Source: a virus. Taken from it: DNA of 64,000 nucleotides. Positions 42,342 through 61,419 of this stretch are shown here, one piece after another. The stretch is taken from IMG/VR virus record IMGVR_UViG_3300045256_000135, positions 62,001 through 126,000 of that record; one strand, written 5' to 3'. The stretch's first letter is position 1; each line of letters starts with the position of its first letter. The position numbers and the translations under genes were made by a program. The notes below the pieces were generated by a model, which had not been told where the DNA came from, ran no database searches, and saw only the letters and a list, made by a program, of their open reading frames with translations.

Positions 42342-44786
42342 ATGCCCGTAGCTAGCAACGTGTACCTGGATCCCGGGGTATACCAAGAGGAAGTGATTAA
42401 CCCCAATGCCCTTGCACTTGGGCAGCTGGTTTCACTTCTGGCGGTAGTTGGCATTGCGCCGAGACTTCGCTATGTATACAACGAAGCGGTCCGTCGTGGT
42501 CAAGTGGCAAATGAGTCTGTTACCTTTGCGGGTAGCTCACCTCACACAGCTACGACGATTAACATCGCTACTAGAAAGCAGGATGACACAGTTCTGATTC
42601 GCAACGGAACTGATGTGATGCCGGATAACTCGTATCAGTGGCTACCCGCCACTGTTACGGGAATCAATGGCACATTCAACATTGCTGCCAACTCGTTCTT
42701 GACCATGAACATGGACAAGAAGGGTTGGATCTCGATCCCGATCACTGCTGGAGCTGCTCGAACAGCAGCGCAGGTATGCACTGACATCAATTCAGCTTTG
42801 GCTGCAAGCCCTCTGTATGGTGTTGCATACAACAACGTGGCGACTGTCTCTGGCTCGGCAGTTAAGCTGTTGTCTCCGAACAGTGCTTCACCGCAACTAA
42901 GCGATATTCGGTTCATTGCAACCCCCACTGATACTCCCACGTATGGAGCTGATGCTAAAGTCATCATCTTTGGTGGCTCCAACCCGTTCATTGCTCAGTC
43001 AACGCTCCAACTGTTTGATGCGTTCTGGACTGGCACAGATACGTTCACTATCAGCTACGTAGCGGTTGACACGCTACTCGATGCGTTAGCCAACACGAAC
43101 GTTCAAGAGATCAACCGTGTTGGTATGTTCGCGAACGTAACGAGTTTCCAGAATCTGGTTGATTACACACTGAACAGCAACTCAGTGGACTGGACTCTGA
43201 ATACGAGTGCGACACTCACTGGTCTGAACGGTACATTCAACATCACCGCTGGTAACAACATTCTGCGGTGTTCGTTCAACGGCCTGGGTGTAGTTAACGT
43301 CACCCTACCAATTGGTGCAGCGATTACTGCAGCTCAGATCGCAACTGCGATTAACCAAGCGCTAATTGCTAGCAGCTTGTACGGCCCACTGTATGGTGCA
43401 GTGGCTTCAGTATCAGGTTCAGCTGTTGCTCTGACACTTCCAAGTCCGTTTAAGGACATGCCAGTTGCTCAGGGTACAAACAGCACCATCGAGTTCTATG
43501 CTGTTGCGGCCAACGCTGTAACCACGGTCTTTGGCATCTCGACACTAAGTCTGCCATTCCAAGCAAATGGTTCTGCCGACCAGCCTGTGGTTGGAGCTAC
43601 CTACTTCGTGTCATACGACTATACGAGACCAGCGACGGACTACAACTCGTCGGATCCAACCACGCACCTGTTCTACAACTCCGACGATGCTCTGGCGTAT
43701 ACCGGACCTCTGACGAAGACCAACGCGGCTCAAAATACTCTTGGCATTGCTGCCAAGATTGCGTTTGAGAACAATGCTCAGCGATTGCTTCTCATCCAGG
43801 CTAATGACTCAACCACGCCTGGGTTCCCTACAATCAATCAGATGAAAGCAGCTATTGACTCAGCTGCAAACAATTCTGGGATCACGGAGCTAGTGGTACT
43901 AGACACCAGACTTGGTGTACAGACCTATCTAGTAACTCACGTTACTAACCAAAGCTCGATCACAGAGAAGAACTACCGCAGAGGTTGGTTTGGCATGGCG
44001 CGGAACACCCCAGTTGGTGATAAGGACACCGCTGGGTCGTTTGTGTATACTGCTCAGAGAACTCTGCAGGTAACACCAGACTCACCCGGTCGCGGAAGAA
44101 TGTTACTTTCAGCGCCATCGAACGTGTCGAAGACAATCACTCTGAGTGATGGCTCAGAGAAGACAATCGCTCTCGATTCAACCTATCTCGCCGTAGCTAC
44201 TGCTGCTACAATGACTTCGTTTATCTCTCCAGCCACCGCTCTGTTGAGAAAGACGATAGTTGGCTTTGATCTTGATACATTCCAACTGTATCAGAAGGGT
44301 GAGCGCAAGACTCTCGCTGCAAGCGGTGTAAACGTCATCACTCCACTTGGAGGGAGACTAGTTCTGACAGATCCGGTTACCACTGAACAGGGAGCTGGTG
44401 GTCTGCCAGAGTTCATCGAGCCATCAGCAGGTGCTCAGAAGGACAATGCGGTTCGGGCGATTGACTCAGCATTGGATGCGAACATGGTGGGTCTGGTCCC
44501 ATCAGACCTAGCAGACTTCGTGAATGATATCAAGGGCTTTATCGCAGTTGCGATTAGAGCTCTGATCGAAGCTGGGTCCCTGGGGCGCTACACTGATCGA
44601 AACGGTCGGACTAGAGACATTGACCTCGCCACCGACATTCAAGTGTATCAGTCACCAACTGATCCAACCAAGTTCTTCTTCCGGTACTGGTTCAACATCC
44701 GCTACCCAGCCAAGCGTCTAATGGGTCAGTACTCGGTTGACAACCCGTTCGTTAACAACAACCAGAACTCAATCCAGACATCGTAA
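42342..44786 (+). CDS. Tail sheath protein
   Basis: An 814-residue contractile tail sheath. The N terminus VYLDPGVYQEEV matches the sheath start found in many myoviruses, and the C-terminal 200 residues (DIDLATDIQVYQSPTDP, FFRYWFNIRYPAKRLMGQYSVDNPF) form the interlocking handshake domain. Two similar insert domains (about 99-183 and 291-371, each with NGTFNI, GAA-type turns and SPLYG or SSLYG and VSGSAV endings) look like an internal duplication. It works with the tube protein just downstream. Confidence 0.93.
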   Translation: MPVASNVYLDPGVYQEEVINPNALALGQLVSLLAVVGIAPRLRYVYNEAVRRGQVANESVTFAGSSPHTATTINIATRKQDDTVLIRNGTDVMPDNSYQWLPATVTGINGTFNIAANSFLTMNMDKKGWISIPITAGAARTAAQVCTDINSALAASPLYGVAYNNVATVSGSAVKLLSPNSASPQLSDIRFIATPTDTPTYGADAKVIIFGGSNPFIAQSTLQLFDAFWTGTDTFTISYVAVDTLLDALANTNVQEINRVGMFANVTSFQNLVDYTLNSNSVDWTLNTSATLTGLNGTFNITAGNNILRCSFNGLGVVNVTLPIGAAITAAQIATAINQALIASSLYGPLYGAVASVSGSAVALTLPSPFKDMPVAQGTNSTIEFYAVAANAVTTVFGISTLSLPFQANGSADQPVVGATYFVSYDYTRPATDYNSSDPTTHLFYNSDDALAYTGPLTKTNAAQNTLGIAAKIAFENNAQRLLLIQANDSTTPGFPTINQMKAAIDSAANNSGITELVVLDTRLGVQTYLVTHVTNQSSITEKNYRRGWFGMARNTPVGDKDTAGSFVYTAQRTLQVTPDSPGRGRMLLSAPSNVSKTITLSDGSEKTIALDSTYLAVATAATMTSFISPATALLRKTIVGFDLDTFQLYQKGERKTLAASGVNVITPLGGRLVLTDPVTTEQGAGGLPEFIEPSAGAQKDNAVRAIDSALDANMVGLVPSDLADFVNDIKGFIAVAIRALIEAGSLGRYTDRNGRTRDIDLATDIQVYQSPTDPTKFFFRYWFNIRYPAKRLMGQYSVDNPFVNNNQNSIQTS

Positions 44787-44851: not shown

Positions 44852-45313
44852 ATGCCCGTTAATCCGCCGAACACACAAGTCCGTACCTCCCATGCGATTA
44901 CACTCAGAGCCAACGGTATCACAGTTGGCATCATCCAGAGCTGGTCGCCGAACCAATCGAGAACGATTACACCGATCTACGAGATCAATCAGGCAACGTC
45001 TGGTGAGCCGATTGAGAACGTTCCGGGTAACGTGGGTGGTCTGACCATCGGTGTTTCTCGATACGATTTGTACACCAAGCGGATGGAGCAGGCGTTTGGC
45101 ACTCCAGATTCCGCAATGCTTGGTGATCACAACAACCCGTTCACCGTGCTGGAAGTTTGGAGATTCCCAAACAATACGGTGGAATCGTTGCTTTACACAG
45201 GCTGCTGGTTCTCGTCAATCGGCAGACAGTACAGCGCAACTGATGCACGCGTTGTCCTTGCCAATGCACAGCTCTCGTACGTCCGCAAGATGTTCGTCCA
45301 GAAGGGTGCGTGA
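44852..45313 (+). CDS. Tail tube protein
   Basis: A 153-residue protein directly after the sheath, the usual place for the tube. It shows the beta-rich, mostly soluble pattern of tube proteins (HAITLRANGITVGIIQSW, EVWRFPNNTVESLLYTGCWF), with ATD and YVRKM at the end. AGGA lies about seven bases upstream. The hexameric rings form the conduit through which DNA and packaged proteins leave. Confidence 0.88.
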   Translation: MPVNPPNTQVRTSHAITLRANGITVGIIQSWSPNQSRTITPIYEINQATSGEPIENVPGNVGGLTIGVSRYDLYTKRMEQAFGTPDSAMLGDHNNPFTVLEVWRFPNNTVESLLYTGCWFSSIGRQYSATDARVVLANAQLSYVRKMFVQKGA

Positions 45314-45783
45314 TGAAGAAGTTGCTCTTTAGTTTCACTCTGATCTGTATGCTGGTCGTTCCAGAGGGGTGCTCTGATTGGGTTTCGAACTTCAAGAAGG
45401 ATCCAGTTGCTCAGACGCAATCCATTCTGACAACCGTACAGACTGTAGTAGACATCGCTACGATGATCTTCAAGCAGGCCTTGACGGCTCTTCCAAAGGA
45501 CAAGGTTGACGAACTTCAGAAGAAGTTTGACGATATTGTTCTTGTTATCAACAACTCGAAGACCCTGCTGATGGATGGTCTCGAAGTTGCTAAGACCGCA
45601 GGGACAAACCCAACCCTCGGAACGATTGTTGATCAGCTAACCAAGGGCGTTGTTGATCTTCAGGCCTTGGTCAACTCGATCAAGGCGACTACGGGGTCGA
45701 AATTCGGAGCTGGATCTGGACATGAAGACGATCTAGACAAGGCCGTTCACACATACCAGAAGTTCGCTGTTGAACTGAAGTGA
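45313..45783 (+). CDS. Secreted or lipoprotein-like helical protein
   Basis: A 156-residue protein starting in the tube stop codon (TGATG). The first 20 residues are a typical signal peptide: KK, then LLFSFTLICMLVV. Cysteine 20 (PEGC) resembles a lipobox but breaks the usual consensus. The mature part is helical with TILTTVQTVVDIA-like amphipathic stretches. Possible roles are superinfection exclusion, an outer spanin partner, or an envelope interaction. It is the last gene before a stem-loop terminator. Confidence 0.7.
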   Translation: MKKLLFSFTLICMLVVPEGCSDWVSNFKKDPVAQTQSILTTVQTVVDIATMIFKQALTALPKDKVDELQKKFDDIVLVINNSKTLLMDGLEVAKTAGTNPTLGTIVDQLTKGVVDLQALVNSIKATTGSKFGAGSGHEDDLDKAVHTYQKFAVELK

Positions 45784-45946: not shown

Positions 45947-46552
45947 ATGGAAAAGGAAATCAAGGACGCGAAGGTTAGTGAAGCTCTAAGCTTGATGGAC
46001 GACTTAGAGCAAGAGCTAGATTCAGGCTTTCTCGAAGAGATCGTGCAGGTCCGAGGGAGACTGTGGAAACTTCGTCTGTTGTGTGACCATGAGCAGGCTT
46101 GGGCGATGGGCTATGTGAAGGGTACAACGTTCTCAGCGATTGTACTCTCTCAGAAGACTCCCACACTTGCTATCGCGATCAGAGAGATTGGCAAGTTGAA
46201 CGCTGACGGGTCAAAGTCAATGTTCAGCATCCAAGACTTCTTTGTGAAGGAGTGGGAAGAGGTGACTAAGGGCAGTGCTGCTGAGATTCAGCGCGTGCTG
46301 AACTCCACCAACCCATATGCAGCGCAGTATTGGTTAGCGGAACGAATGTTTGAGTGGCTGTCAAAGCGCCCGCACGAGTTCACCACCGAGTTGTGGACGA
46401 AGTATCAAGAGCTCATGACTCGTCGGGAGAAAGCGGAAACAGCCATGGGAAAATCCTCAGAGGAGGGTGGGAACTCGTCCCAGACGAAGACGACGAGCTC
46501 GTCTCCCTCCTCAGAGACCACCCAGAGCTCCACTGGCGCTGGCAACAGCTAA
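45947..46552 (+). CDS. Tail assembly chaperone (short form)
   Basis: A 201-residue protein upstream of the tape measures, the usual position of lambda gpG-like chaperones, which bind the tape-measure protein so tail tubes assemble around it. It is acidic and helical. After residue 169 the zero frame turns into a low-complexity serine/threonine tail, while the -1 frame carries a real protein domain. GGAGAGG precedes the ATG and lies inside a perfect 12-bp palindrome. A weak TTGAAG / TATACA pair about 100 bases upstream is a possible promoter. Confidence 0.85.
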   Translation: MEKEIKDAKVSEALSLMDDLEQELDSGFLEEIVQVRGRLWKLRLLCDHEQAWAMGYVKGTTFSAIVLSQKTPTLAIAIREIGKLNADGSKSMFSIQDFFVKEWEEVTKGSAAEIQRVLNSTNPYAAQYWLAERMFEWLSKRPHEFTTELWTKYQELMTRREKAETAMGKSSEEGGNSSQTKTTSSSPSSETTQSSTGAGNS

Positions 46553-47100
46553 AGATCAAGGCACGCGTCTGTTCTGACAAGCACATCCTACTCTCGGATC
46601 CGAGAGTACGGGAGATGTCACGTACACGATGGCTATTCGAAGCTTGGCAGCTTCGAATGAAGGATGCGAAACACCAGAAAGAGGTCAATACCATCGGGAA
46701 ACAGGGACTTGAGGCGATTCGTGATATACTAATCTCATTACTCGGTTTGAATCTTGCGCCAATTCCCGATGGCACTGATGAGAAAGGTGAGCCAAAGTAC
46801 CGATGGCCTGGCGAGGGTGAATATACACCCATGTTGTTTGCTATCGCAAGGCCAGACTATGCTTCAACTGTGTCAGAAGCAGTCAAAACACTCATCCCGC
46901 AAGAGTTTGACGATCAGCCAGTTCAAGATTTCTCCGAGGACGATCTGGAGTTCTTTGACGAGCTTCAAGCTGACCCAAAGACAGCTTTTTGGAATTCAGA
47001 CGAGATGATCCAGCAACGGAAGGCGTACATCAAAGAGGATGCCTCGATTCCAGCAACCAAGCCTACGCGTGTGAAGATAGAGATAGACGATGACACTTGA
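45947..47100 (+). CDS. Tail assembly chaperone, -1 frameshift fusion
   Basis: This is the long form, joined as 45947-46453 plus 46453-47100 after a -1 slip on GGGAAAA. It gives 169 + 215 = 384 residues. The frame after the slip encodes a coherent helical domain (GGWELVPDEDDELVSLL, HPELHWRWQQL, RTRWLFEAWQLRMKD). It has no start codon with a ribosome binding site of its own at the junction. This matches the gpG-gpGT arrangement of lambda and many other tailed phages. Product amounts are not knowable from sequence. Confidence 0.85.
46447..46512 (+). promoter_or_regulatory. Programmed -1 frameshift signal with three-way junction
   Basis: The heptamer G_GGA_AAA (46447-46453) is in the right phase (codons GGA AAA). 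After six bases, GAGGAGGG (46460-46467) pairs perfectly with CCCTCCTC (46505-46512). Between these arms two hairpins fit end to end: TGGGA-ACTCG-TCCCA (46468-46482), and GACGA/TCGTC (46483-46503) around an 11-base loop. Together they form a three-way junction, a strong stimulatory structure at the usual spacing. The lambda G/GT site has the related heptamer GGGAAAG. Confidence 0.88.
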
Positions 47101-49477
47101 CGCAGAGATTGAGCTAGAGGGCTTTGCTGCGGGTACAGATGCAGCAACTGAACTCGGTAAAGCTGTCACCGAGTATGACGCGCTCGTTGCAAAACTCAAT
47201 GCTCAATTCACTGACTTCGAGAAACTGTTTGACAGACTGAACCAAACAGTTGACAAAGAAACTGCTAAGGTCGGCAAGAACAGCGAAGCTGAGAAGGGTA
47301 AGAAGCAGGAGCTTGATCGTAAGAAACAGCAAGAGCAACAAGAGGCTGAAGAGAAACGACTAAAAGCTCAGATGTCCAAGATGCTTGGGGGCGGCGTGAA
47401 CATGATCGCCTATCAAGCTCAACTGGATAAGCTGAAGGATCAGATGTCTGCTATTGAGCAGGCTGAGAAAAAGGGGTTGGTTACATCTGGTGAGGCAAGT
47501 GACGCGCTAAGCAAGTTGTCAAAGCAATACTCGAAGCTTGAGACTGAGGCTACAGCCTATGCTATTGTTGGTGGTGGCAACATCGGCAAGATGGCGGCTA
47601 AAGCAACTGCCACGCTTCAGTCTCTTCCGGGAGCAGCTCAAGGAGCGGTCAAGAATCAGATTTCAGGCATTGGTACTGGCTTGATGGGGTTGATGAGCGG
47701 ACTTCCAATCGCTGGTGGTCTGTTTGGGCTGATGCTTTACGGTGTTACCAATCGAGATCGGTTAAACGCCGACGCAGGAGAGCTTAGCAACATCTTCCTA
47801 GCTACTGGAAAACGAGCTACTAGTGAAGCGATGGGGTACTTTAGCAGTTTTCAAGAGCAGGCTCAGAAGTACTTGGGGATGTCGAAAGCGGACGTACAAA
47901 CGGTGCTAAACACCTTTGTCAGTGCTGGGATCTCTATTGACCAGATTATGACGAAGCAGCAAGGCAACCTAGGGATGGTCACGCATGACATTGCAACCCT
48001 TTCCCTAGCCATTGATAAGCACTTCGAGATGGCTTCTGGAACATCAGCACGCAATATTGTCACTTTGATCAATGACTTTGGCATGGAGGTAGCCAAAGCT
48101 GGATCAATGTACGAGAAACTTGCGTTTGCTGGCATTCAATCTGGAGTCGGGGTTCAGAATTTCGTCGGTCAGGTGATGCAGTCAGCAACTGCACTCAAGC
48201 AGTACGGTGTGTCAGTTGAAAGTGTAGCTGCATTGTTCTTGAAAGTGCAAGAACATTACGAGAGCCTTGGTATGCCTAAGCAGCTAGCCGGAAACCAGGC
48301 GAGCATCGCGATGGGCCAAATTACATCGGGTCTAGCAAACCTCTCGAACGGTGAACAGTCGTACTTAGGCGAGCGAATGGGGCTAGGTTCTGGGCTTGAG
48401 GCTAGAATGCGGTTCCGTGAAGGTATGACACGATTGACGGGTGGGGAGGGTGGCTCCCCCGACTTCTTGGAGAATCTGCTCCGTGAAAAATACAAGGCAA
48501 CGCTCGAAGCGACTGGTGGGGACAAGACACAAGCTCGATATATCCTCGAACAGACTGGAATGGGCTACGAAGGAGCTAAGCTACTGTCTGAAATTGGCGA
48601 TGATCTTGGCAAAGGTTTGAAGCTATCAGCTTTGACCAAAGAGCAGCGTGATGCTCTAAAAGACTCGTTCATGACTGAAGGGCAGAAGCAATCAGAGCTT
48701 CAAAAAGATCAAAATCGAATCATGGCTGACATGGCGAAGATGGGTGAGGGCACTCTGCAGGTGCTAACCAATCTTGCAGGATGGTTGATCATCTATTTCA
48801 AAGAGTTCCCTGTCTTGTTGATGGGTACCAGTCAAGAGAAGTCTGAGATCAAAGCTGTTGTAGCTGAGTTTCAGCAAGGCATGAAGACCGGGTTGGGCAC
48901 TGTTTGGGATGGTTTGAAATCACTTGGAGCTGACATGGAAGCAGCTTTGAAGCCGATCATCAAACCAATCTTTGATGCATTAGAGTTCGACCCAAATAAG
49001 GCAGCTGGTGTACCAACAATGGCTACCACCATGGGTGACAAAGCTGCGAATGCTGATGCAACCACTAAAGCAGTTGCAGCTCCCTTCATGGCATGGCATA
49101 CAGCCCTAGACTCTGGTGGCGCAGCACTGCAAAAGCATGCTACAGGAATTGCAAATGTGTTGAACCGGAGTGGCTTGATCAAAGACGATCCAGCCCACAA
49201 AGGGTCTACGACTCAGGTTGTGAAGAAACTCGGTGAGTGGTCACAGTTGGGTGGGCAGATCGATTATGATATCGCTGCTGGTTTGGGTTCGCAACAGGCT
49301 AGAGCGTCTCAGTGGGCAAAAGACACCACTGGTTCTGGTGTCTTCAGTGGTGATACCACTGCTACCGCCAGAAAGAAGGAAGAGGACGACTGGGCCAAAC
49401 GAACCACCACCGTGACGGTTGACGTGTACCCCACCTCAAAGCAGGATCAACGACCTACAACGAACACGGGGCAGTAA
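47090..49477 (+). CDS. Tape-measure-like protein 1
   Basis: A 795-residue protein. It has a charged coiled coil (about 30-170), a hydrophobic glycine-rich segment GLPIAGGLFGLMLYGV (about 204-219), long helical regions and a second hydrophobic stretch (about 557-580). The layout fits a tail tape measure, which sets tail length and helps form the membrane channel. It shares its hydrophobic core and general order with the next two long genes in the region, so it is one of three paralogs. It overlaps the chaperone gene by 11 bases. Confidence 0.8.
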   Translation: MTLDAEIELEGFAAGTDAATELGKAVTEYDALVAKLNAQFTDFEKLFDRLNQTVDKETAKVGKNSEAEKGKKQELDRKKQQEQQEAEEKRLKAQMSKMLGGGVNMIAYQAQLDKLKDQMSAIEQAEKKGLVTSGEASDALSKLSKQYSKLETEATAYAIVGGGNIGKMAAKATATLQSLPGAAQGAVKNQISGIGTGLMGLMSGLPIAGGLFGLMLYGVTNRDRLNADAGELSNIFLATGKRATSEAMGYFSSFQEQAQKYLGMSKADVQTVLNTFVSAGISIDQIMTKQQGNLGMVTHDIATLSLAIDKHFEMASGTSARNIVTLINDFGMEVAKAGSMYEKLAFAGIQSGVGVQNFVGQVMQSATALKQYGVSVESVAALFLKVQEHYESLGMPKQLAGNQASIAMGQITSGLANLSNGEQSYLGERMGLGSGLEARMRFREGMTRLTGGEGGSPDFLENLLREKYKATLEATGGDKTQARYILEQTGMGYEGAKLLSEIGDDLGKGLKLSALTKEQRDALKDSFMTEGQKQSELQKDQNRIMADMAKMGEGTLQVLTNLAGWLIIYFKEFPVLLMGTSQEKSEIKAVVAEFQQGMKTGLGTVWDGLKSLGADMEAALKPIIKPIFDALEFDPNKAAGVPTMATTMGDKAANADATTKAVAAPFMAWHTALDSGGAALQKHATGIANVLNRSGLIKDDPAHKGSTTQVVKKLGEWSQLGGQIDYDIAAGLGSQQARASQWAKDTTGSGVFSGDTTATARKKEEDDWAKRTTTVTVDVYPTSKQDQRPTTNTGQ

Positions 49478-50259
49478 TGGCGCTCGCAGATTTGGCTTCA
49501 GCACTGACTCAGTCACTTTTTAACAAAGGTGATGGTCTTCAACCGGTTCGAGTCCCAATGGTGTTCTCTTGCACTAGTTGGAGAGCACGGAACATACCAC
49601 CGCTTGCGTTTAGAGTCAACCCTCACCAAGTGGTATTCAAACAAGCGAAGCGTATCTCGAAGAAGAACACTCGAGGTGGGACCGTTTACTGGCACTGGGC
49701 CGACGATCAGGGATCCGACAACGACATCCTGGAGATGCAGTTTCGTGGTAGAACTGGTTCGATTCTGAACAAACCAAACGATGCTAGTGCAGCACCAGGT
49801 GGACCAGCATCAGCCAACTCTCCACTTGTCGGACTAACCAATCCAATCAGTCAAGACAACCCCACTCCAACTGCTGGTGCAACAAAACACTATCAGTGGG
49901 CTCGATTGTATCAGTTGACTAGCCTCCCGACTCTGGACAAAGAGCTGAACCAACTCAACCTGTCTACCGTAATCTACAGAAGCCCACTCTTTCCCAACCC
50001 TGTTCAGTTTACGGGGTTCTTCAACCAAGTCTTGGACTTTGACGAAGTTGCCGAACGTCCGTTTATGACTGAGTATTCGTTCACGTTTGTGGTTCAGAAG
50101 ACACAACCAAACCTAAACACGCTGACTGAGTACCTAGCGCAGGCTCTGCTGATCAACCCACAACAGTCTGCTGCAATCAACAATGCAGTAGCAACAGCTA
50201 ATGCACAACAACAAGCGAACACTGGAGCTGTAACAGGGTCAAACACGAGAAATGGCTGA
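49477..50259 (+). CDS. Probable distal tail/baseplate protein
   Basis: A 260-residue protein placed between two tape-measure-like genes. It begins with a helix and then strands (FRVNPHQVVFKQAKRIS, GGTVYWHWADDQG, ILEMQFRGRTG), followed by a proline-rich loop and a strand-rich end (YSFTFVVQKTQP). The RVNP...GG-x-x-x-W pattern recalls LysM-bearing or tube-initiator baseplate proteins of contractile phages. The exact role is not certain. It starts in the stop codon of tape measure 1. Confidence 0.6.
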   Translation: MALADLASALTQSLFNKGDGLQPVRVPMVFSCTSWRARNIPPLAFRVNPHQVVFKQAKRISKKNTRGGTVYWHWADDQGSDNDILEMQFRGRTGSILNKPNDASAAPGGPASANSPLVGLTNPISQDNPTPTAGATKHYQWARLYQLTSLPTLDKELNQLNLSTVIYRSPLFPNPVQFTGFFNQVLDFDEVAERPFMTEYSFTFVVQKTQPNLNTLTEYLAQALLINPQQSAAINNAVATANAQQQANTGAVTGSNTRNG

Positions 50260-52417
50260 CATCAAGCTTGAAGGTGCGGTCGACCGATTTAAGAAGCTCG
50301 GAAATGAGCTAGAAAAGCTAATCTCGAGCAAAATCTCGGTAAACGACTCCCTCGCTTCTGTAATTGCTAAGTACAATCAGCCGTCTCCAGCAGAGGTAGA
50401 AGTCCTGCGAACTGAGTTGGTCACAAAGCAAAGAGAGCTGAAAGAGTATGCTCCCTTGTTTGGTGATCGCAGTACTTTGAAGCAAGCGCTCGAATTGAAT
50501 CAGATTCACCAGAAGGTGGTGGATGTTCAAAAAGCAATGCGTATGGGCATTGTGGACATCGAAGCGGGTGAGGAGCAGCTAGCAAAGCTCAGACATGAGA
50601 TGAGTCTTGCTGAGCTAAAAGCACACTCTTTTAGCATGTCTGGCTTGACAGATGAACAGGGTGGTAAAAGTAGCGGTGGGCTTGGATCAAAGCTAGAGGC
50701 TGGAGCAACTGAAGGCATAAACGCAGCAATCACAAAAGTATGCTCAACAATCAGTGGCGAGGCTGCCGGAATTGCGGAAGGTTTACTCGGTTTGTCATCA
50801 GCTCTTCCGGTGGCCGGTGGTCTGTTTGGCTTACTGATGTACGGTGTTAAGGAGCACGATAGACTTCAGCAACAGTCTGGTGCTTTGCTGAACGTCGTGA
50901 GTGCTTACGGAGCAGAAAGCTATCGGAAGTCGATAGCTTGGCTTGACGGTTTTCAAGAGCGAGCCCAGAAATTCTACGGTATTAGTCGAGGAGCAGTTCT
51001 AAGCATCGTTTCGCAATACGTAAACGCAGGCGTAAGCTTGTCTGATTTTCTTTCGGTTTATGATGCTAGCTTAGGCGAAGTGGGGACTAATGCCGTCACA
51101 GCAACCCTAGCTCTGGATAGGACCTTCGAATTGGCAAATGGGTTCACTGCTCGCGGAGCCATTGCACAGATGCGTGCTCATGGCTACTCGATGCATGATG
51201 CCGTGTCTAGAATGGCCTTGATGGAGTCTGCCGTAGCAAAAGCAGGGCTTGGAGTTGAGCGAACTATCACTTGGGCTCTCCAAGCTGCTCAAAACGTGCG
51301 TAGGTTTGGTATAGACGCACAGCAACTAGTAGAAGCATCAATCGCGTTCAGCAGATCACGGAGAAACAAAGGCCTCGGCCAGCAAACTGGTGTTGCACAG
51401 GGTCTGTCCGAATTCACACAGGGACTCTCTTCGTTGTCGACCGCTCGTGAGCTGTGGATGGCGGAACAACTTGGGTACGGTAAGGGTCTACTTGGTCGAT
51501 GGGCTATGCGTGACATGTTGAAGAACGTTGATTCAACTCGTCTCTTGCAGATTGCTAAGATGTTCAGAGATGAAGCTGTCAGGTCTGGTGGAGATGAGAC
51601 TAATGCTCGATTCTTCCTTGAGCGGCAGGGTTTCGGGTTTGAAGGAGCTAGAGCTATCTACGAGCTGGGGGATTTGACTAACAAGGACTTGAAGTTGTCT
51701 GAGCTTGATGCGCAAGCTCTTGGAAACCTCCGCTCTGCATTTGTTGACGAGGGCAGTAAGGTTTCTGAAAATCAACGAAAACTGAACGCGATTTTGGCGA
51801 GTATGCGAACTGTTGCTCAAACCTCTATGAGCATCCTCAGTGACGCGGTTGCGTTTGTGATTGTTGGTGTAGAGTCGCTTCCGTATATCATGTTGGGTAC
51901 CGGTGCTCAGAGAAGGGCAGCATATGCTGAGCTAGAGAGGATCACAGGTGATCTGACCGGAAACGCAGCACTGTTTTGGTCTGGCTTGAAAAGCACCGGC
52001 GAAGGGATAGGCCAGATTCTTGAGCCACACATTCGACCAATTGTCAAAGCATTGGTGTTTGATCCAAAAGTCTCACTAGCACAAAGGGACGCTGCCATAC
52101 AAGCTGCTTCAGATACTGAGAAGCACACTAATCGAGTTGCCGCTTGGCAGAATCCAGTACTCAGACCGGTTGGTGATGCAATGCTATTTGGAGCAAAGAC
52201 AGTTAACCAGGGTCTAAAGGCAACAGGGGCTGATACAACTGACACGGACAAGTGGGGAATTGTCTCTGATCAGAGGATTCAAAAGACCGAACAAACGAGA
52301 GATGAGGCCGATAGCAATGGACCACATTCGATGGCACCAGTTATCAAGCGGCGGATGCACCCTGGAGCTGATTCAGCTGATTCAGTACGTGTTCAAGTGA
52401 CGGTTGCTTATGGCTGA
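50252..52417 (+). CDS. Tape-measure-like protein 2
   Basis: A 721-residue paralog of the protein at 47090, with the same order: coiled coil, glycine-rich hydrophobic segment (ALPVAGGLFGLLMYGV, about 184-199), helical middle with an FQERAQKFYGIS stretch, the RFFLERQGFGFEGARAI region and a second hydrophobic segment near 523-550. It overlaps the previous gene by eight bases. Either it forms a mixed tape-measure assembly with the others, or it has a different role in the tail tip. Confidence 0.78.
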   Translation: MADIKLEGAVDRFKKLGNELEKLISSKISVNDSLASVIAKYNQPSPAEVEVLRTELVTKQRELKEYAPLFGDRSTLKQALELNQIHQKVVDVQKAMRMGIVDIEAGEEQLAKLRHEMSLAELKAHSFSMSGLTDEQGGKSSGGLGSKLEAGATEGINAAITKVCSTISGEAAGIAEGLLGLSSALPVAGGLFGLLMYGVKEHDRLQQQSGALLNVVSAYGAESYRKSIAWLDGFQERAQKFYGISRGAVLSIVSQYVNAGVSLSDFLSVYDASLGEVGTNAVTATLALDRTFELANGFTARGAIAQMRAHGYSMHDAVSRMALMESAVAKAGLGVERTITWALQAAQNVRRFGIDAQQLVEASIAFSRSRRNKGLGQQTGVAQGLSEFTQGLSSLSTARELWMAEQLGYGKGLLGRWAMRDMLKNVDSTRLLQIAKMFRDEAVRSGGDETNARFFLERQGFGFEGARAIYELGDLTNKDLKLSELDAQALGNLRSAFVDEGSKVSENQRKLNAILASMRTVAQTSMSILSDAVAFVIVGVESLPYIMLGTGAQRRAAYAELERITGDLTGNAALFWSGLKSTGEGIGQILEPHIRPIVKALVFDPKVSLAQRDAAIQAASDTEKHTNRVAAWQNPVLRPVGDAMLFGAKTVNQGLKATGADTTDTDKWGIVSDQRIQKTEQTRDEADSNGPHSMAPVIKRRMHPGADSADSVRVQVTVAYG

Positions 52418-55019
52418 TTTGCATTCATTGACTGCAGCCCTGCAAGGATTCGGGGCTGGAATGGTCAAGCTGAATGGTTTGCTTGGAAAGTTCTCAGAGA
52501 CTCGAGAGAAGTGGCTAGAGAAACCTGTTGAACTTCCAGCACCTCCACAGCCAAAGCACCCTCTCGGTGATGAGCATCAAGAGCTTCTTGACATCAAGCT
52601 CGACGCTGGGAAGATTGGTGGACTACTCGAAGAGAGTTACTTCGAGCAGATGGCTACTATTCAGGTTCAGATCAGTGAGGTGAATGCTGCTGTTCGTTTG
52701 GGTGTGGTTGATAAGAAGCATGCGTCAGAGCTGCTAGCAGAGCTGGAAGAGAAGTATGCTACTCTTGGTCGTGAAGCAAAAGCGCACGACTTTGGTGGTG
52801 CTGGCGCAGTGGAGCTTCTTCGGCAGGTGTCAGACGCTCCAAACAAAGCCATGCAGTTCGTGAAGGATCAGTTTGCTGGAATCGCAACTGGCACTTTGGG
52901 GCTTGCAGCAGGTTTACCAATAGCTGGTGGTCTGTTTGGTTTGCTGATGTACGGTGTCACTGAAAAAGATCGTATGGCGGTGCAAGCTGGTGAACTGACG
53001 AACATTATGTCTGCGTCTGGTAGATCGGTATCGTCTAGTTTTCTGCAATTTTACGCCAGTTTCCAAGAGAATGCTCAGCAATTCATGGGCATGAGCAGAA
53101 GCGATGTTCAGTCGATTATCTCGACTCTTGTGCAATCAGGGGCAGTGCTAGATGGGTTAAGCACTAACTGGCACTCAGAGCTGGGGGTTGTTGGGCATGA
53201 CGTGATTACGATGTCTCTAGCGTTTGATAAGCTCTTTGAGGAGGCCACGGGGACAACGATCAGTGAGGCTATAGAAACCTCTCGAAACTACGGGGTAAGT
53301 CTAGAATCAGCCACGCTATCTATGATCAAGATCGGGTTCTCTGCAAGTAAGGCTGGAACATCGATCTCTGGCTTCATGAAATACGTGACGGATCTAGAGC
53401 CACAGCTTCGCTATTACAGAGCTGACGCTGAATCGATTGCAGCACTCACTATCTCTCTTCAGGAGGAGTACGAAAACGCGGGGATGGTAGCCTCTGTTGC
53501 AATGGCGACCGCAAAGCAAGGTATGCAACAGATTAGTCAGGGGTTGTCCAATCTTAGCATTGGTGTGAAGGCTCACGTTGGCGAGCAGTTAGGGCTGGGT
53601 GATGGCGTTGATGCCGCCTACGCTCTGACTGATTCGATTAAGAACGCTGATTCGCAGATGTTCTTCAGCACGTTGAAGCAGATCGCCTCACTCGCCGAAA
53701 AAGAGACAAAAGGTACTGGTACTGAGCTCCTGAGTCCAGACGATAAGATCCGCTATTACCTAGAGAACCAGCTTGGGATGGGTTTCGAGGGTGCTTTGGC
53801 TCTATCCAAGATTCTGAAAATGCAAAGCTCTCAAGCAAAGCTTGGAGAAGTTGAAGCGTCGGATTGGGCGTTGTTACGAGACTCGTTCAAGACTGAAGCA
53901 GAGAAGCAGTCCGAGCTAGAGAAGGACAAGAACGAGATTCTGAAGGGGATGGCGAACGTTGGGCAGGGCATGCTTGGCACGCTTCTCTCGTTTTCTGGAT
54001 TTGCGATTATTGCGATCAAGGGCCTGTTCTCGATGCAGTATGGTGATTGGAATGCCATGTTAGCCAATTTTGGAGGGCAAGCGTTGTCGGCTGGGCTAGG
54101 CGCTATTGACGTTGATATCACATCAATCAACTTCGTTCCGAGATCTGCTCAAAATCTGGCAGTTTACCAAAAAGAGCAGGAATTCTTCAATCAGATGGGT
54201 GACCAGTTCCACCAGGTGGTTACAGGTACCAGCATGATTGGAAATGGCATCGGAAAGATTGCGTATCCACTCATTGTACCGTTATTAAAAGCACTAGGTT
54301 ACAAGTCTGGCTGGACTTCAATTGTTGGACAAGCTGCGGGACAGACAATTGCAAACTTTGACGCCGCAGTAGCTAAGGCAGCTCCAGGTGTTTACAAAAC
54401 CCTTGCTGATGCTCCAAAGAAGTTGGTTCAAGCTGATGGCAAATACACTGCCTACGCACCAGCTGGTTCAACACTGGTTGAGACCAAAAAGATGCCTGTA
54501 ACCTACGAGCAAGTCAGGGCTGCGGTTGCTGAGGCGTTCAAGCAAGTGACTGGTGCTATGCCGTCAGAAGAGCTAGCTGACACATTAGCCGCGCAGGCGT
54601 GGTTTGAATCGGGTCAAACAGGTGGGCTCTACAACTACAACTTCGGCGGTGTGAAAGGAAAAGGCACAACGGGGCAAACTGCTCTGTTTGCAACCCATGA
54701 AGTGATCAACGGTGAGACCTTAGCTGTGAAGGACTTCTTTCGAGCATACGAAACCCTGCTCGATGGTGCCATTGACTACGTCAAGATCCTCAAAGGTCGC
54801 TATCAGTCTGCGATTGACGCTGCTCAGCATGGGGATGTTGAAGGGTACGTACACAAGCTGAAGGAACGTGGTTACTTCACTGGTGATGAAGCGAAGTACA
54901 AGCAGTTCATTTCGTCGATCATCAAAGCACACCAGAAACCCAAAGTTAACGTCACAGCAACGATGAACAAGACGCCAGACGGCAACGAAGTAAGAGTCGT
55001 TACGCAGATCTCTCATTAG
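52410..55019 (+). CDS. Tape-measure-like protein 3 with glucosaminidase-like domain
   Basis: An 869-residue paralog. ATG 52410 is chosen over a TTG at 52404. It has the shared core (GLPIAGGLFGLLMYGVTEKDRM, about 169-189) and the second hydrophobic segment (about 519-545). The end, about 700-847, is a separate domain resembling GH73-type or FlgJ-like N-acetylglucosaminidases: AQAWFESGQTGG with E733, NYNFGGVKG, FRAYETL, and a GYFTGDEAKYKQF end typical of this family. Such a domain lets a tail penetrate peptidoglycan. The last gene of its run. Confidence 0.82.
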   Translation: MADLHSLTAALQGFGAGMVKLNGLLGKFSETREKWLEKPVELPAPPQPKHPLGDEHQELLDIKLDAGKIGGLLEESYFEQMATIQVQISEVNAAVRLGVVDKKHASELLAELEEKYATLGREAKAHDFGGAGAVELLRQVSDAPNKAMQFVKDQFAGIATGTLGLAAGLPIAGGLFGLLMYGVTEKDRMAVQAGELTNIMSASGRSVSSSFLQFYASFQENAQQFMGMSRSDVQSIISTLVQSGAVLDGLSTNWHSELGVVGHDVITMSLAFDKLFEEATGTTISEAIETSRNYGVSLESATLSMIKIGFSASKAGTSISGFMKYVTDLEPQLRYYRADAESIAALTISLQEEYENAGMVASVAMATAKQGMQQISQGLSNLSIGVKAHVGEQLGLGDGVDAAYALTDSIKNADSQMFFSTLKQIASLAEKETKGTGTELLSPDDKIRYYLENQLGMGFEGALALSKILKMQSSQAKLGEVEASDWALLRDSFKTEAEKQSELEKDKNEILKGMANVGQGMLGTLLSFSGFAIIAIKGLFSMQYGDWNAMLANFGGQALSAGLGAIDVDITSINFVPRSAQNLAVYQKEQEFFNQMGDQFHQVVTGTSMIGNGIGKIAYPLIVPLLKALGYKSGWTSIVGQAAGQTIANFDAAVAKAAPGVYKTLADAPKKLVQADGKYTAYAPAGSTLVETKKMPVTYEQVRAAVAEAFKQVTGAMPSEELADTLAAQAWFESGQTGGLYNYNFGGVKGKGTTGQTALFATHEVINGETLAVKDFFRAYETLLDGAIDYVKILKGRYQSAIDAAQHGDVEGYVHKLKERGYFTGDEAKYKQFISSIIKAHQKPKVNVTATMNKTPDGNEVRVVTQISH

Positions 55020-55100: not shown

Positions 55101-57581
55101 ATGTCTAGGGCTACTGGTGTAGAACAGGGCAAGGTACGGAACTTCTTCCCTGCCTACCGAGTGTTCATTGCTGGGGTCGAAGTAACAAGACTTTGCTCGT
55201 CAGTGCGGAACAGCTGGTCAGACCACAACCCAGCACAGGTGGTTGTCGAGCTTGTTAACCCAAACCAGTTGATGACTCTGACAGCGTACGACATGCTGCT
55301 GATTGCTGCGTACAAGCAACAAGCAGTGTCCCAGGCTCTCGCCGAACTGTCAGCAGAATTTAACTCGAGATTGTTGCGGCTTGGGTCAGAGAACGTATTC
55401 CAGAGAGCGCTGGGGGAGCTACAGGATCAGTTTCCCATTGATCCCCAGGACGTCTTGAACTACTATGCTGACATTGCGCGTCAAGATTTGATTTTTCCTC
55501 AGGTGGGGAATTTGCCACCTCCACTCGATATCTTCGCCGATCTGAAAAACACGATTCTAGCGAAGAAGCTTGAGTTGGTGTATCAGCAGGGCACAATTGG
55601 CATTGATGGTCAGCCCTTACCGAACGAAGCTTTCTTCAAGTACCCAATGGTTCAAGGGCAGTGGATCTGGCATACTGAGGATCCAGTAGTCGTTGCAGTT
55701 CGAGATGTCGCGGACCCGAGCAGGTGGTATTGGTTTGGTCGTGGAACAATCACGGACATCTCTGAAGACGAAGACGAGAACATGCAGTCGAAGCTCAACA
55801 TTACTGTTGAGGGTGTTCTCAAACCGTTCAGAAATTCCCGTGTAGCAAACTTCACTGGCGCAATTTTGTCACCACGAGAATTCAAAACTGCAGCTGGGGA
55901 CGTAACTACGATCAGTCCAGAGGATTACTCTCAGATCCAGAATGCAAGCTATACCAACTTTCTGCAAAACCTCACGATTCAACAGATCGTGGAGATCATG
56001 GTGTTTGGATCTCAGTCGGTGCTTGACGACTTGGGTCAGGCAGTGCGAGCTGTGCAGCAGGGTGATGAGCCAGAAGCTCTGCTGCAAGAACGCTTCGGTA
56101 TACCTGTAAACTCTGAGGGAGCTATCTCTGATCAGGCGATCTCTGCGTTTCAGCAACAACTGCGGAATCTGAATATCTCTGGATTAGGTGGATTCAAACG
56201 TTTTTCTCGGGTTTCTGGTGTGGACGTACGAATTCTGGGTGGCGGAAACGCAGACAATGCTTCGGACGTTGTTCTTGGTACTCAGACACCGTCTCTCAGT
56301 GAGTGGCACAAGCTGCTAGATAATGAGATCACTACTGCAGACTTCTACAACATGTACATTCCAGACGCTGTTCAGACCGGCGTTACGTCGAACACGTCTG
56401 GCAGGCCTGTGCCACCCCTACAGTGGTTGGCACAAGGTACAGTTCGAGGCAACCAGCTGAATTTGAACACACAAGTTGACCAAGGAACACTGCTAGAGCA
56501 GGTGATCACCGCAATCGGAACGCACCCAGAAAACTACCCAATTCGTCAACGTGTCCTAATGCTGCTCCCGGCAAACTTGGGCGCCAGATTGGGGCGGAAG
56601 GTGCTAGACCTAGAGATAGCAAACTCAGCTGGCTCTGTAGCAGAATTCTACGACAGATTATCCTTGCTTCAGCAGATTCTCAGCAGAATGGAGTTCTCGT
56701 TTTACGACACACCTCGAGGTGACGTAGTGATTGAGATGCCATTGTACGACTTTGAACCTAGACACTTTGCTAACACCAACGAGCTTTCTGATCAGTACAC
56801 TGAGGGTCCAACTGGAACAGGAAACGTCACCCAAACGTTTACCAATGTTGAGGAGCAACTTACAGCTGACGCTGCATTCCAAGAGCTTACGGCCATTGAG
56901 AAAGCGAATCTTGAGTCAGTTGTGCCAACCACGACTGCGTATGATCGAACCTTTCGGATCTTTCCGTTCGAACAGATCCGGATCAATATCACTCGCAGTG
57001 ATCAAGACGCAAAGACTGTTTGGGTGGCAACACCTAGATGGACCGAGGCAATTGCTAGAGATGGTTCACAAGCATCTCGACAAAGGGTTGCAGTTGCTCT
57101 GCCGAATTTGATCCCGTTGTACGGTATCCGCGTAGAGCAAGGAGACCCACCAGGCAATATTCGAACGGATGAAGCTGCACGACTCTACTGCTACCTGCAA
57201 CTGATGAAGTGCAATGCGGATATTGTCAGTCTTCGTGTGCCATGTTTGCCAAATTGGGGAGCATGGCTAAACCGCCCGGTGCAAGTCGACTCTCGCAACA
57301 TCATTGGATCGACCAAGTCAATCACGCACTCCATTGTCTGGCAGTCGGATTGTTCGACGGAGTATGGGTTCTGGCACTGCAAGTTTTGGGATGGACGATT
57401 TGTACCAACAGCTACAGGTCCTAGAAAGCTGTATTCTACGTTTGGTGGGGTGAACTCCCAACCCTTCAACTACTCGTATCTCCTGCAAATCGACAAGATC
57501 TCAGCAGCACTTGGAGCTCAACCTGGCCAAGCTGATGCAAATCTCAGTGCAGTCTTTGACACGATTAGGAATGGACGATGA
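55101..57581 (+). CDS. Baseplate hub protein
   Basis: An 826-residue protein following the tape measures, with GGAGAG upstream of the ATG. The start VFIAGVEVTRLCSSVRNSWSD and later FGRGTITDISEDEDEN blocks resemble hub proteins (T4 gp27 / gpD type), which form the ring at the tail tip. A large insert at about 280-470 and a C-terminal CDFG-less strand region follow. The spike gene follows with an ATGA overlap, as expected for hub-spike pairs. A 79-base gap before the gene shows a weak TACTAT box. Confidence 0.8.
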   Translation: MSRATGVEQGKVRNFFPAYRVFIAGVEVTRLCSSVRNSWSDHNPAQVVVELVNPNQLMTLTAYDMLLIAAYKQQAVSQALAELSAEFNSRLLRLGSENVFQRALGELQDQFPIDPQDVLNYYADIARQDLIFPQVGNLPPPLDIFADLKNTILAKKLELVYQQGTIGIDGQPLPNEAFFKYPMVQGQWIWHTEDPVVVAVRDVADPSRWYWFGRGTITDISEDEDENMQSKLNITVEGVLKPFRNSRVANFTGAILSPREFKTAAGDVTTISPEDYSQIQNASYTNFLQNLTIQQIVEIMVFGSQSVLDDLGQAVRAVQQGDEPEALLQERFGIPVNSEGAISDQAISAFQQQLRNLNISGLGGFKRFSRVSGVDVRILGGGNADNASDVVLGTQTPSLSEWHKLLDNEITTADFYNMYIPDAVQTGVTSNTSGRPVPPLQWLAQGTVRGNQLNLNTQVDQGTLLEQVITAIGTHPENYPIRQRVLMLLPANLGARLGRKVLDLEIANSAGSVAEFYDRLSLLQQILSRMEFSFYDTPRGDVVIEMPLYDFEPRHFANTNELSDQYTEGPTGTGNVTQTFTNVEEQLTADAAFQELTAIEKANLESVVPTTTAYDRTFRIFPFEQIRINITRSDQDAKTVWVATPRWTEAIARDGSQASRQRVAVALPNLIPLYGIRVEQGDPPGNIRTDEAARLYCYLQLMKCNADIVSLRVPCLPNWGAWLNRPVQVDSRNIIGSTKSITHSIVWQSDCSTEYGFWHCKFWDGRFVPTATGPRKLYSTFGGVNSQPFNYSYLLQIDKISAALGAQPGQADANLSAVFDTIRNGR

Positions 57582-59985: not shown

Positions 59986-61419
59986 ATGCCCGTTCCCAAG
60001 ACAACTGCCACCCAGTTTGAACAGAAGATTGCGCTAGGTATTAACCAGCGTGATCAACGGCAAAAGACAGAATACGGTCCGATCCGAGACATCGTTTGCC
60101 GAGCTCCATCAGTTGTACTGGAAGCGCAGAATGAGCGAATCAGGTCTCTGTTTCAGCTGTTGTCCTTACAGCAGGTTGATTCACTTGATCCAGCAGATAT
60201 TGACGCGTTTGTGTACAACGAACAGGTGATCCGCAGTCAAGGAACGTCATCGTTCACAACTCTGACGTTCTTTAGAAAGACGCTACCAGTTTCAAACATT
60301 ACAGTCCCGACTGGGTTTCCGGTCGGAACTGATCGCGACCCGGTAACAGGAGCTCAGATCACGTATGTTACGCTTGAGCCTGTTACGCTTGTGGCACTAA
60401 ACGCATCTGCGTACTTTAACGGCGTGACTGGTCGATACGAGTTAACCGTAACTGCAGGGTCCGTAACCACGGGAACCAATACCACTGTAGCAGCTGGTGC
60501 TCTCAAGAACCCACTACGACCTCTGATTGGGTTCGATGGCGTGACCAATTCTGAGTCAACTGGTGGTCTTCCAGCAGAAACAAACCAACAAGTAGCTGAT
60601 CGATATGGACTTAGAGTTCGTGGTACAGAGATTGGTACACCACCAGGTCTTAGTAGATATGCTAGGCAAACGTTTGGTAGCATCCAAGACCTCTACCTTG
60701 TCTATGGGAATGATCCATTTCTAACCAGAGCAGCAAAAGACGCGGGTGCGGTTGACGTTTGGGTGCTAGGTAGCAGTCCGGTTCAACGGGTAATGACTGC
60801 TCCGTTTCCTGGGCGCTTGATCCCAATTGCATTCGATAAACAACCAGGGATCGACATTGTTTCGGTTCAGTCAGGTGTAACCTACACACAGAACGTCGAT
60901 TATCAATACTACAGCGACCCCGGTGTTTGGTCTAGATCAACACGTGGTTCAGACGGAGTCGTCTTCACATCCACAGGTGCAGCTCCCGCGATTGGGGATC
61001 CCGTTACAATAACGTATCGATACGACAATCTTATCATTGCTTTGCAGTCGTTTTTTACCATTCCAGAGTACTACGAAACAGGTCGTGATGCACTGTTCCG
61101 CAGAGGAATTGAAGTTGGCTTCTCAATCTCAGGCAATTTGAAAGTGAATGCTGGGAATCCGCTAGTAGTGCAGGGCCAGTCAGCTCAAGCACTTCTAGAC
61201 TACTTCAATGGCAACCAAATCCAGCGTGGCCTCAGATTGGGGCAAGCTGTCGAGCTGTTTGACCTTGATGCTGAACTAAGTCGTGTACCCGGCGTGGACA
61301 ACTTTACCTACACACAACTTGCTCCTTTAGGAGTAGTTGGTGTAAATCAAGACACTCCCATGCTTCCAAACCAATACGCAAGACTCAACATTGCTGACCT
61401 AACGATCACGTTGGTGTAA
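59986..61419 (+). CDS. Baseplate wedge/J-like protein
   Basis: A 477-residue protein. The DSLDPADIDAFVYNEQVIRSQGT start, the GGLPAETNQQVADRYGLRVRGTE block and the later VDVWVLG strand match the baseplate J-like / gp6 family, which forms the wedge of contractile tails. It follows the gp25-like protein by three bases. A single open frame without cysteines near the ends. Confidence 0.85.
   Translation: MPVPKTTATQFEQKIALGINQRDQRQKTEYGPIRDIVCRAPSVVLEAQNERIRSLFQLLSLQQVDSLDPADIDAFVYNEQVIRSQGTSSFTTLTFFRKTLPVSNITVPTGFPVGTDRDPVTGAQITYVTLEPVTLVALNASAYFNGVTGRYELTVTAGSVTTGTNTTVAAGALKNPLRPLIGFDGVTNSESTGGLPAETNQQVADRYGLRVRGTEIGTPPGLSRYARQTFGSIQDLYLVYGNDPFLTRAAKDAGAVDVWVLGSSPVQRVMTAPFPGRLIPIAFDKQPGIDIVSVQSGVTYTQNVDYQYYSDPGVWSRSTRGSDGVVFTSTGAAPAIGDPVTITYRYDNLIIALQSFFTIPEYYETGRDALFRRGIEVGFSISGNLKVNAGNPLVVQGQSAQALLDYFNGNQIQRGLRLGQAVELFDLDAELSRVPGVDNFTYTQLAPLGVVGVNQDTPMLPNQYARLNIADLTITLV

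What the first reader, a model, noticed from the sequence alone, without database searches (positions are those of the whole stretch)
47090..55019. Three consecutive paralogous tape-measure-like proteins
The genes at 47090, 50252 and 52410 share the same order of elements and a near-invariant hydrophobic core (P[IV]AGGLFGL[ML][LM]YGV). Most phages have one tape measure. A 260-residue baseplate-type gene lies between copies 1 and 2, so this is not one broken gene. All are full-length. The tail might use a mixed ruler, or copies 2 and 3 may be tip or penetration proteins.
Basis: partly seen in the sequence, partly recalled or inferred. Interest (0 to 1): 0.76.

Follow-up and report, generated by a model that had tools for sequence, protein, structure and literature searches.

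The report
Three sister tape-measure proteins, one lysin-tipped
This uncultured tailed phage has three related copies of the protein that normally sets tail length, and here and in its relatives with two or three copies only one copy carries a cell-wall-cutting enzyme, which suggests that the tail's inner rod is built from several specialised chains rather than one repeated chain.

Summary
ORFs at 47090 (A, 795 aa), 50252 (B, 721 aa) and 52410 (C, 869 aa) are full-length paralogs (29-36% identity over 513-570 aa; BLASTP E 3e-67 to 2e-85). They fill the tape-measure slot of a contractile tail: sheath, tube, one -1 frameshift chaperone pair, then A, a tube-initiator-like gene, B, C, hub. The array is conserved in two other uncultured phages, and A, B and C each form an orthologous clade.

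I recovered 30 related phages. Eleven have one such gene, ten have two, nine have three, none more; no fused gene was seen. Three-copy phages are not one clade on a hub+initiator tree (p-AU 1.6e-5), and the third copies have different origins, so triplication probably happened at least twice.

The type differs: glucosaminidase (in C here), SLT-like, Hydrolase_2-like, M15 or M23. No other paralog and none of the 11 single-copy proteins has a detectable one.

Best reading: a hetero-oligomeric tape measure whose strands divided labour, one carrying the lysin. Paralogy and the lysin rule are shown; co-assembly in one bundle is inferred.

The parts
42342..44786 (+). Tail sheath protein (814 aa)
   Evidence: tblastn to annotated tail sheaths of Rhodococcus phage Finch, Gordonia phage Stormageddon and Bacillus phage G, E 4e-6 to 9e-9; 44% identity to Rctr197k
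44852..45313 (+). Tail tube protein (153 aa), by position after the sheath
   Evidence: Conserved family present in one to three copies in relatives; role by synteny
45947..46552 (+). Tail assembly chaperone, gpG-like (201 aa)
   Evidence: Position and -1 frameshift organisation
46447..46453 (+). Slippery heptamer GGGAAAA for -1 frameshift into the ORF ending at 47100 (gpGT-like product)
   Evidence: Read in frame (G GGA AAA); comparable heptamers in the same place in most relatives
46354..47100 (+). -1 frame ORF encoding the gpT-like extension of the chaperone
47090..49477 (+). Tape-measure paralog A (795 aa); slowest-evolving copy; no hydrolase domain
47705..47746 (+). Hydrophobic motif PIAGGLFGLMLYGV of paralog A
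49477..50259 (+). Tube-initiator/baseplate-hub-type gene (260 aa) between A and B
   Evidence: Single-copy homolog next to the hub in the relatives found with it; weak Foldseek matches are mostly tail tubes and CIS baseplate tube proteins, but the model is low-confidence
50252..52417 (+). Tape-measure paralog B (721 aa); no hydrolase domain
50807..50848 (+). Hydrophobic motif PVAGGLFGLLMYGV of paralog B
52410..55019 (+). Tape-measure paralog C (869 aa) with a C-terminal lysin domain
52917..52958 (+). Hydrophobic motif PIAGGLFGLLMYGV of paralog C
54576..54935 (+). Glucosaminidase (PF01832, GH73-type) domain of paralog C; keeps a Glu (WFESGQTGG) and the NYNFGGVKG motif
   Evidence: Pfam E 4.3e-10, 40.8 bits against a cut-off of 30.2; motif read directly
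55101..57581 (+). Baseplate hub-type protein (826 aa), directly after the array
   Evidence: Conserved across all relatives; role by synteny
59986..61419 (+). Baseplate J-like protein (477 aa), confirms the contractile-tail baseplate context
   Evidence: Pfam Baseplate_J E 1.4e-4, above cut-off

Best explanation
A, B and C are three tape-measure protein (TMP) paralogs produced by gene duplication and kept because they specialised. They most likely assemble together as one hetero-oligomeric bundle inside the tail tube, each C-terminal end near the hub. A is the most constrained strand and probably sets length. C ends in a peptidoglycan hydrolase that would leave the tube tip first and open the cell wall. 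The conserved hydrophobic segments would then help form the DNA channel in the inner membrane. Shown: paralogy, orthologous retention, tape-measure gene context, repeated triplication, and one lysin per set. Inferred: co-assembly, stoichiometry, and the reason for duplication, namely that a bundle of three or six chains in a narrow lumen can carry one or two lysin domains only if its chains are not identical.
For: Slot and context: sheath, tube, frameshift chaperones, array, hub, baseplate J. All-helical prediction with a well-predicted series of short helices at residues about 300-500, as described for TMP globular domains (PMC11329794). Weak but recurrent TMP profile hits in family members: phrog_28 4e-4, phrog_10613 2e-4, phrog_167 4e-6, PhageMin_Tail 5e-4, TMP_3 9e-4. 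A, B and C are orthologous clades in three phages; grouping by phage is rejected, p-AU 2e-6. In 30 phages copy number is 1 (11), 2 (10) or 3 (9), never more. ABC form a clade 100/99 with B+C 98/92; T2 is sister to T1 of the other three-copy group 99/95. Three-copy phages are not a clade on hub+initiator, p-AU 1.6e-5. Exactly one lysin-type extension per multi-copy set, none elsewhere. The shared core is 314-355 aa in all 58 proteins. Known TMPs are homotrimers or hexamers (PMC11329794, PMC11915804, PMC10966104), so three 1:1:1 chains would fit the same lumen.
Against: No virion proteomics or images exist for any of these uncultured phages. Pre-core lengths of T1 and T3 do not covary, and A, B and C differ by tens of residues. 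Ten phages have two copies, which does not divide a trimer evenly (though it does a hexamer). Curated TMP models do not recognise A, B or C of the window at their cut-offs. The multi-copy phages form one clade on hub+initiator (95/98), so the lysin rule rests on few independent lineages.
Confidence: 0.52

Rival explanations
1. Only A is the tape measure. B and C are derived copies that became tail-tip, penetration or ejection proteins and are not part of the tape bundle.
For: B and C lie between the initiator and hub genes rather than before the initiator. They evolve about twice as fast as A. C carries a glucosaminidase. Single-copy relatives keep only the upstream gene.
Against: B and C keep the full core, coiled N-terminal part and at least one hydrophobic segment. 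In the other three-copy group all copies lie upstream of the initiator. No baseplate or ejection family is matched.
Confidence: 0.22
2. The three proteins are additive rulers lying end to end, so the tail is about three times longer than in single-copy relatives.
For: Each is full-length and of similar size; copy number varies between related phages.
Against: All three share the same architecture rather than complementary ends. No TMP working in series turned up in the literature searches. Length cannot be checked here.
Confidence: 0.07
3. The paralogs are alternatives: each virion uses a homo-oligomer of one of them, giving variable tails or host-specific penetration.
For: Nothing in the sequence shows that the three proteins must meet in one particle.
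Against: One frameshift chaperone pair and overlapping genes in one apparent operon serve all three. All three are retained over deep divergence.
Confidence: 0.08
4. The family is not a tape measure but another helical, membrane-active virion protein, and the true tape measure lies elsewhere.
For: Curated TMP models do not score above cut-off; no solved-structure match; no similarity to the Stormageddon TMP by profile.
Against: In single-copy relatives it is the only large gene between the chaperones and the initiator/hub; weak TMP profile hits recur.
Confidence: 0.07
5. Assembly artefact or decaying duplicates.
For: None found.
Against: The same array occurs on independent contigs from other metagenomes with open frames, and the paralogs are too diverged for an assembly repeat.
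Confidence: 0.01

Closest known systems
Single tape-measure proteins of contractile tails (Mu gp42, Pam3, A-1(L) gp13, diffocin CD1366)
   Same: Gene position after the chaperones and near the hub; long helical chain with a domain of short helices and hydrophobic segments
   Different: One gene, homotrimer or six-fold bundle; here three diverged paralogs
Lysin-bearing tape measures (mycobacteriophage TM4; phiCbK gp95 with a CHAP domain)
   Same: A peptidoglycan hydrolase domain fused to a tape-measure protein
   Different: There the single tape-measure gene carries the enzyme; here only one of two or three paralogs does, and the enzyme type is exchanged between phages
Virus Rctr197k (KX853510), only relative found in the annotated phage collection by hub and initiator
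   Same: Same sheath, initiator and hub families and gene order
   Different: A single TMP homolog (669 aa) without a detectable hydrolase domain
lambda gpG/gpGT frameshift chaperones
   Same: Two-frame chaperone gene with a slippery heptamer directly upstream of the tape measure
   Different: One pair appears to serve three tape measures

Membership tests
Tail tape-measure protein | Large gene between the tail chaperones and the baseplate hub | tested here: met
   in single-copy relatives it is the only large gene there
Tail tape-measure protein | Preceded by a frameshift chaperone pair | tested here: met
   GGGAAAA at 46447 in frame with the -1 ORF to 47100; same organisation in L004, L005 and most others, though not detected in L018, L013 and L026
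Tail tape-measure protein | Mostly alpha-helical chain with hydrophobic segments | tested here: met
   AF2 secondary structure all-helical, mean pLDDT only 55; hydropathy windows at 198-219 of A, 178-199 and 521-550 of B, 158-183 and 518-540 of C
Tail tape-measure protein | Match to curated TMP profile above cut-off | tested here: inconclusive
   Window proteins none; relatives hit TMP families weakly, E 4e-6 to 9e-3, Pfam hits below cut-off
Tail tape-measure protein | Length sets tail length; protein is in the tube | not testable with these tools
   No cultured virion
Glucosaminidase (PF01832) | Profile score above cut-off with catalytic Glu region | tested here: met
   40.8 bits against 30.2; WFESGQTGG...NYNFGGVKG
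Glucosaminidase (PF01832) | Cleaves peptidoglycan | not testable with these tools
   Needs zymography
Tube initiator (Mu gp43 / Afp7-Pvc7 type) for the 260-aa gene | Tube-like beta domain | tested here: inconclusive
   pLDDT 49.7; top Foldseek matches mostly CIS baseplate and tail-tube chains, best E 7e-3
Homo-oligomeric TMP from a single gene | Single gene product | tested here: not met
   Three diverged paralogs

The most novel reading that the evidence does not exclude
An obligate hetero-oligomeric tape measure: three paralogous strands at fixed stoichiometry (1:1:1, or 2:2:2 in a six-chain bundle) in one tail, with a single exchangeable lysin warhead at the C-terminus of one strand, reached by repeated duplication in separate lineages.
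Probability: 0.42. Interest if true: 0.8.

Novelty: new variant of a known kind. Interest (0 to 1): 0.64.

Why it matters
Tape measures are treated as one gene per tail forming a symmetric homo-oligomer. A lineage with one, two or three copies, where one copy alone carries the wall-cutting enzyme, would show how a symmetric ruler can become an asymmetric machine with division of labour. It makes the open question of TMP stoichiometry testable: copy number never exceeds three in 30 phages. It also gives a modular site where phages have swapped at least five types of peptidoglycan hydrolase, useful for enzyme discovery. Annotation pipelines are likely to miss all of these genes, because current TMP profiles do not recognise the window's copies.

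Tried and rejected
Direct tblastn of A in 50,697 annotated phages: no match; single-protein scan of IMG/VR: none; genome-contig scans with sheath and initiator alignments: none, so no integrated copies or hosts were found. Profile search of solved structures gave only chance coiled coils; Foldseek of the TMP-A model gave no credible match. Profile comparison with the Stormageddon tape measure failed (E 0.18). Orthology of the two lysin-bearing copies (C and T3) was tested and rejected (p-AU 0.0075 and 0.0013). A+T1, B+T2 and B+T1 were rejected as well, A+T3 at p 0.02; monophyly of T1+T2+T3 was not rejected (p 0.155). The D1+D2 grouping is unresolved (72/41). The test of C+T3+D1 did not finish. 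Pre-core length covariation between T1 and T3 was tested and is absent. A hydrolase in the hub or following gene of five single-copy phages was sought and not found. Literature searches found no paralogous tape-measure sets; 'two tape measure proteins' in SuMu are database homologs from mass spectrometry. The submission format was corrected once.

Full report
WHAT IS THERE. Three ORFs at 47090-49477 (A, 795 aa), 50252-52417 (B, 721 aa) and 52410-55019 (C, 869 aa) are full-length paralogs. Pairwise BLASTP gives E 3e-76 (A-B), 2e-85 (A-C) and 3e-67 (B-C) over 513-570 residues at 29-36% identity. The hydrophobic P[IV]AGGLFGL[ML][LM]YGV motif is as reported. The 183-kb parent record contains exactly three members. 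The genes overlap their neighbours by 8 nt at the initiator-B and B-C junctions, as in one translation unit.

CONTEXT. The array sits in a contractile-tail module: sheath 42342-44786 (related to annotated sheaths), tube, a small lipoprotein, a chaperone gene with an in-frame GGGAAAA slippery heptamer at 46447 leading into the -1 ORF that ends at 47100, A, a 260-aa gene, B, C, hub, and further on a Baseplate_J protein. The 260-aa gene is a single-copy neighbour of the hub in the relatives. Its low-confidence model resembles tail tubes and baseplate tube proteins of contractile injection systems, so 'tube initiator' is a fair but unproven name.

CONSERVATION. Two other IMG/VR phages (L004, L005) carry the same order A, initiator, B, C, hub. 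A, B and C form separate orthologous clades across the three phages (98/99, 100/99, 90/98), and a tree that groups the window's three is rejected, p-AU 2e-6. The duplications therefore predate these phages. A evolves about half as fast as B and C.

COPY NUMBER. Searches with the sheath, initiator and hub reached 30 distinct phages. A profile of the family gives one copy in 11, two in 10 and three in 9. Whole-record searches agree for the records searched (two-segment hits in single-copy records lie in one gene). The copies are separate genes, never fused. In the second three-copy group (L021, L023, L024, L025, L031, L045) all three genes precede the initiator; I call these T1, T2 and T3, use T1 and T3 for the two-copy relatives of that group, and D1 and D2 for the two copies of L054 and L062. 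On a hub+initiator tree multi-copy phages form one clade (95/98), but three-copy phages do not (p-AU 1.6e-5). On the protein tree, A, B and C form a clade (100/99) with B and C sisters (98/92), while the third copy of the other group (T2) is sister to its T1 (99/95). Cross-group orthology A-T1, B-T2 and C-T3 is rejected. The third copy thus arose at least twice. Whether the first duplication was shared is unresolved (T1+T2+T3 monophyly p 0.155; D1+D2 support 72/41).

THE LYSIN RULE. In every multi-copy phage one paralog has a C-terminal extension that is, or is homologous to, a peptidoglycan hydrolase: Glucosaminidase in C of the window and L004 (E 4e-10, 4e-9); an SLT-like domain in L005 (Pfam 0.0097, below cut-off; phrog_196 1.6e-5); Hydrolase_2 in T3 of L040, L048, L027 and L066 (1.7e-7 to 1.3e-4; the last two below cut-off); Peptidase_M15 in L049 and L069; Peptidase_M23 in L054 (6e-10) and, below cut-off, L062. 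The remaining T3 proteins lack their own Pfam hydrolase hit but their extensions align with the L040, L048 or L046 extension by BLAST. The other paralogs and the 11 single-copy proteins showed no hydrolase (one search lists the families matched by 21 proteins together). The rule covers 19 phages but at most about three independent lineages.

MECHANISM. Solved tape measures are homotrimers (full-length diffocin, PMC11329794; Mu C-terminus, PMC11915804) or show a six-fold bundle (Pam3, A-1(L), PMC10966104). My best reading is that these phages build the bundle from different chains. A homo-oligomer would bear three or six copies of a globular enzyme; a mixed bundle needs only one or two. A, the slowest and with the longest pre-core segment, may set length; C may lead the exit. 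All of this about assembly is inference. Points against: no length covariation, two-copy phages, and no virion data. I put co-assembly near one half and tape-measure identity of the family near 0.9.

MEMBERSHIP. By position, chaperone context, helicity and hydrophobic segments the family behaves as tape measures. Curated profiles do not accept the window proteins, and only weak hits occur in relatives, so this is a divergent TMP family. The literature library held no description of paralogous tape-measure sets; subscription papers are mostly not covered.

Noticed in passing
window 45310-45783; L004 8008-8526; L005 8109-8564: A small predicted lipoprotein (signal peptide plus lipobox-like VPEGCS / LETGCT / LTCSGCS) sits between the tube and chaperone genes in all three phages of this group; an odd place for a lipoprotein, perhaps superinfection exclusion.
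   Followed up: partly
window 37483-39519; L005 102-2093: A 678-aa protein made mostly of 20-residue repeats (SDTVTVTDS..., period 60 nt) upstream of the tail genes; L005 has a different repeat (GIDSSEVIGKG...) in the same place.
   Followed up: partly
L028, L034, L036, L051, L011 (three copies); L013, L018, L022, L026, L027, L048, L066, L069, L070 (two copies): The tail tube gene is also duplicated: several single-tape-measure relatives carry two or three tandem tube paralogs, while the window has one. No simple relation with tape-measure copy number.
   Followed up: partly
L021, L023, L024, L040, L046, L070 T3 proteins, start of the C-terminal extension: A conserved CP[RK]C motif (mostly GNCPRCG..F) precedes the Hydrolase_2-like domain in T3 paralogs; possible metal site or hinge.
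   Followed up: no
window 46447-46453 and equivalents: The slippery heptamer of the chaperone varies by lineage (GGGAAAA, AAAAAAA, AAAAAAC, AAAAAAT, GGGAAAC, CCCAAAC) while the -1 organisation is kept; none was detected in L013, L018 or L026.
   Followed up: yes
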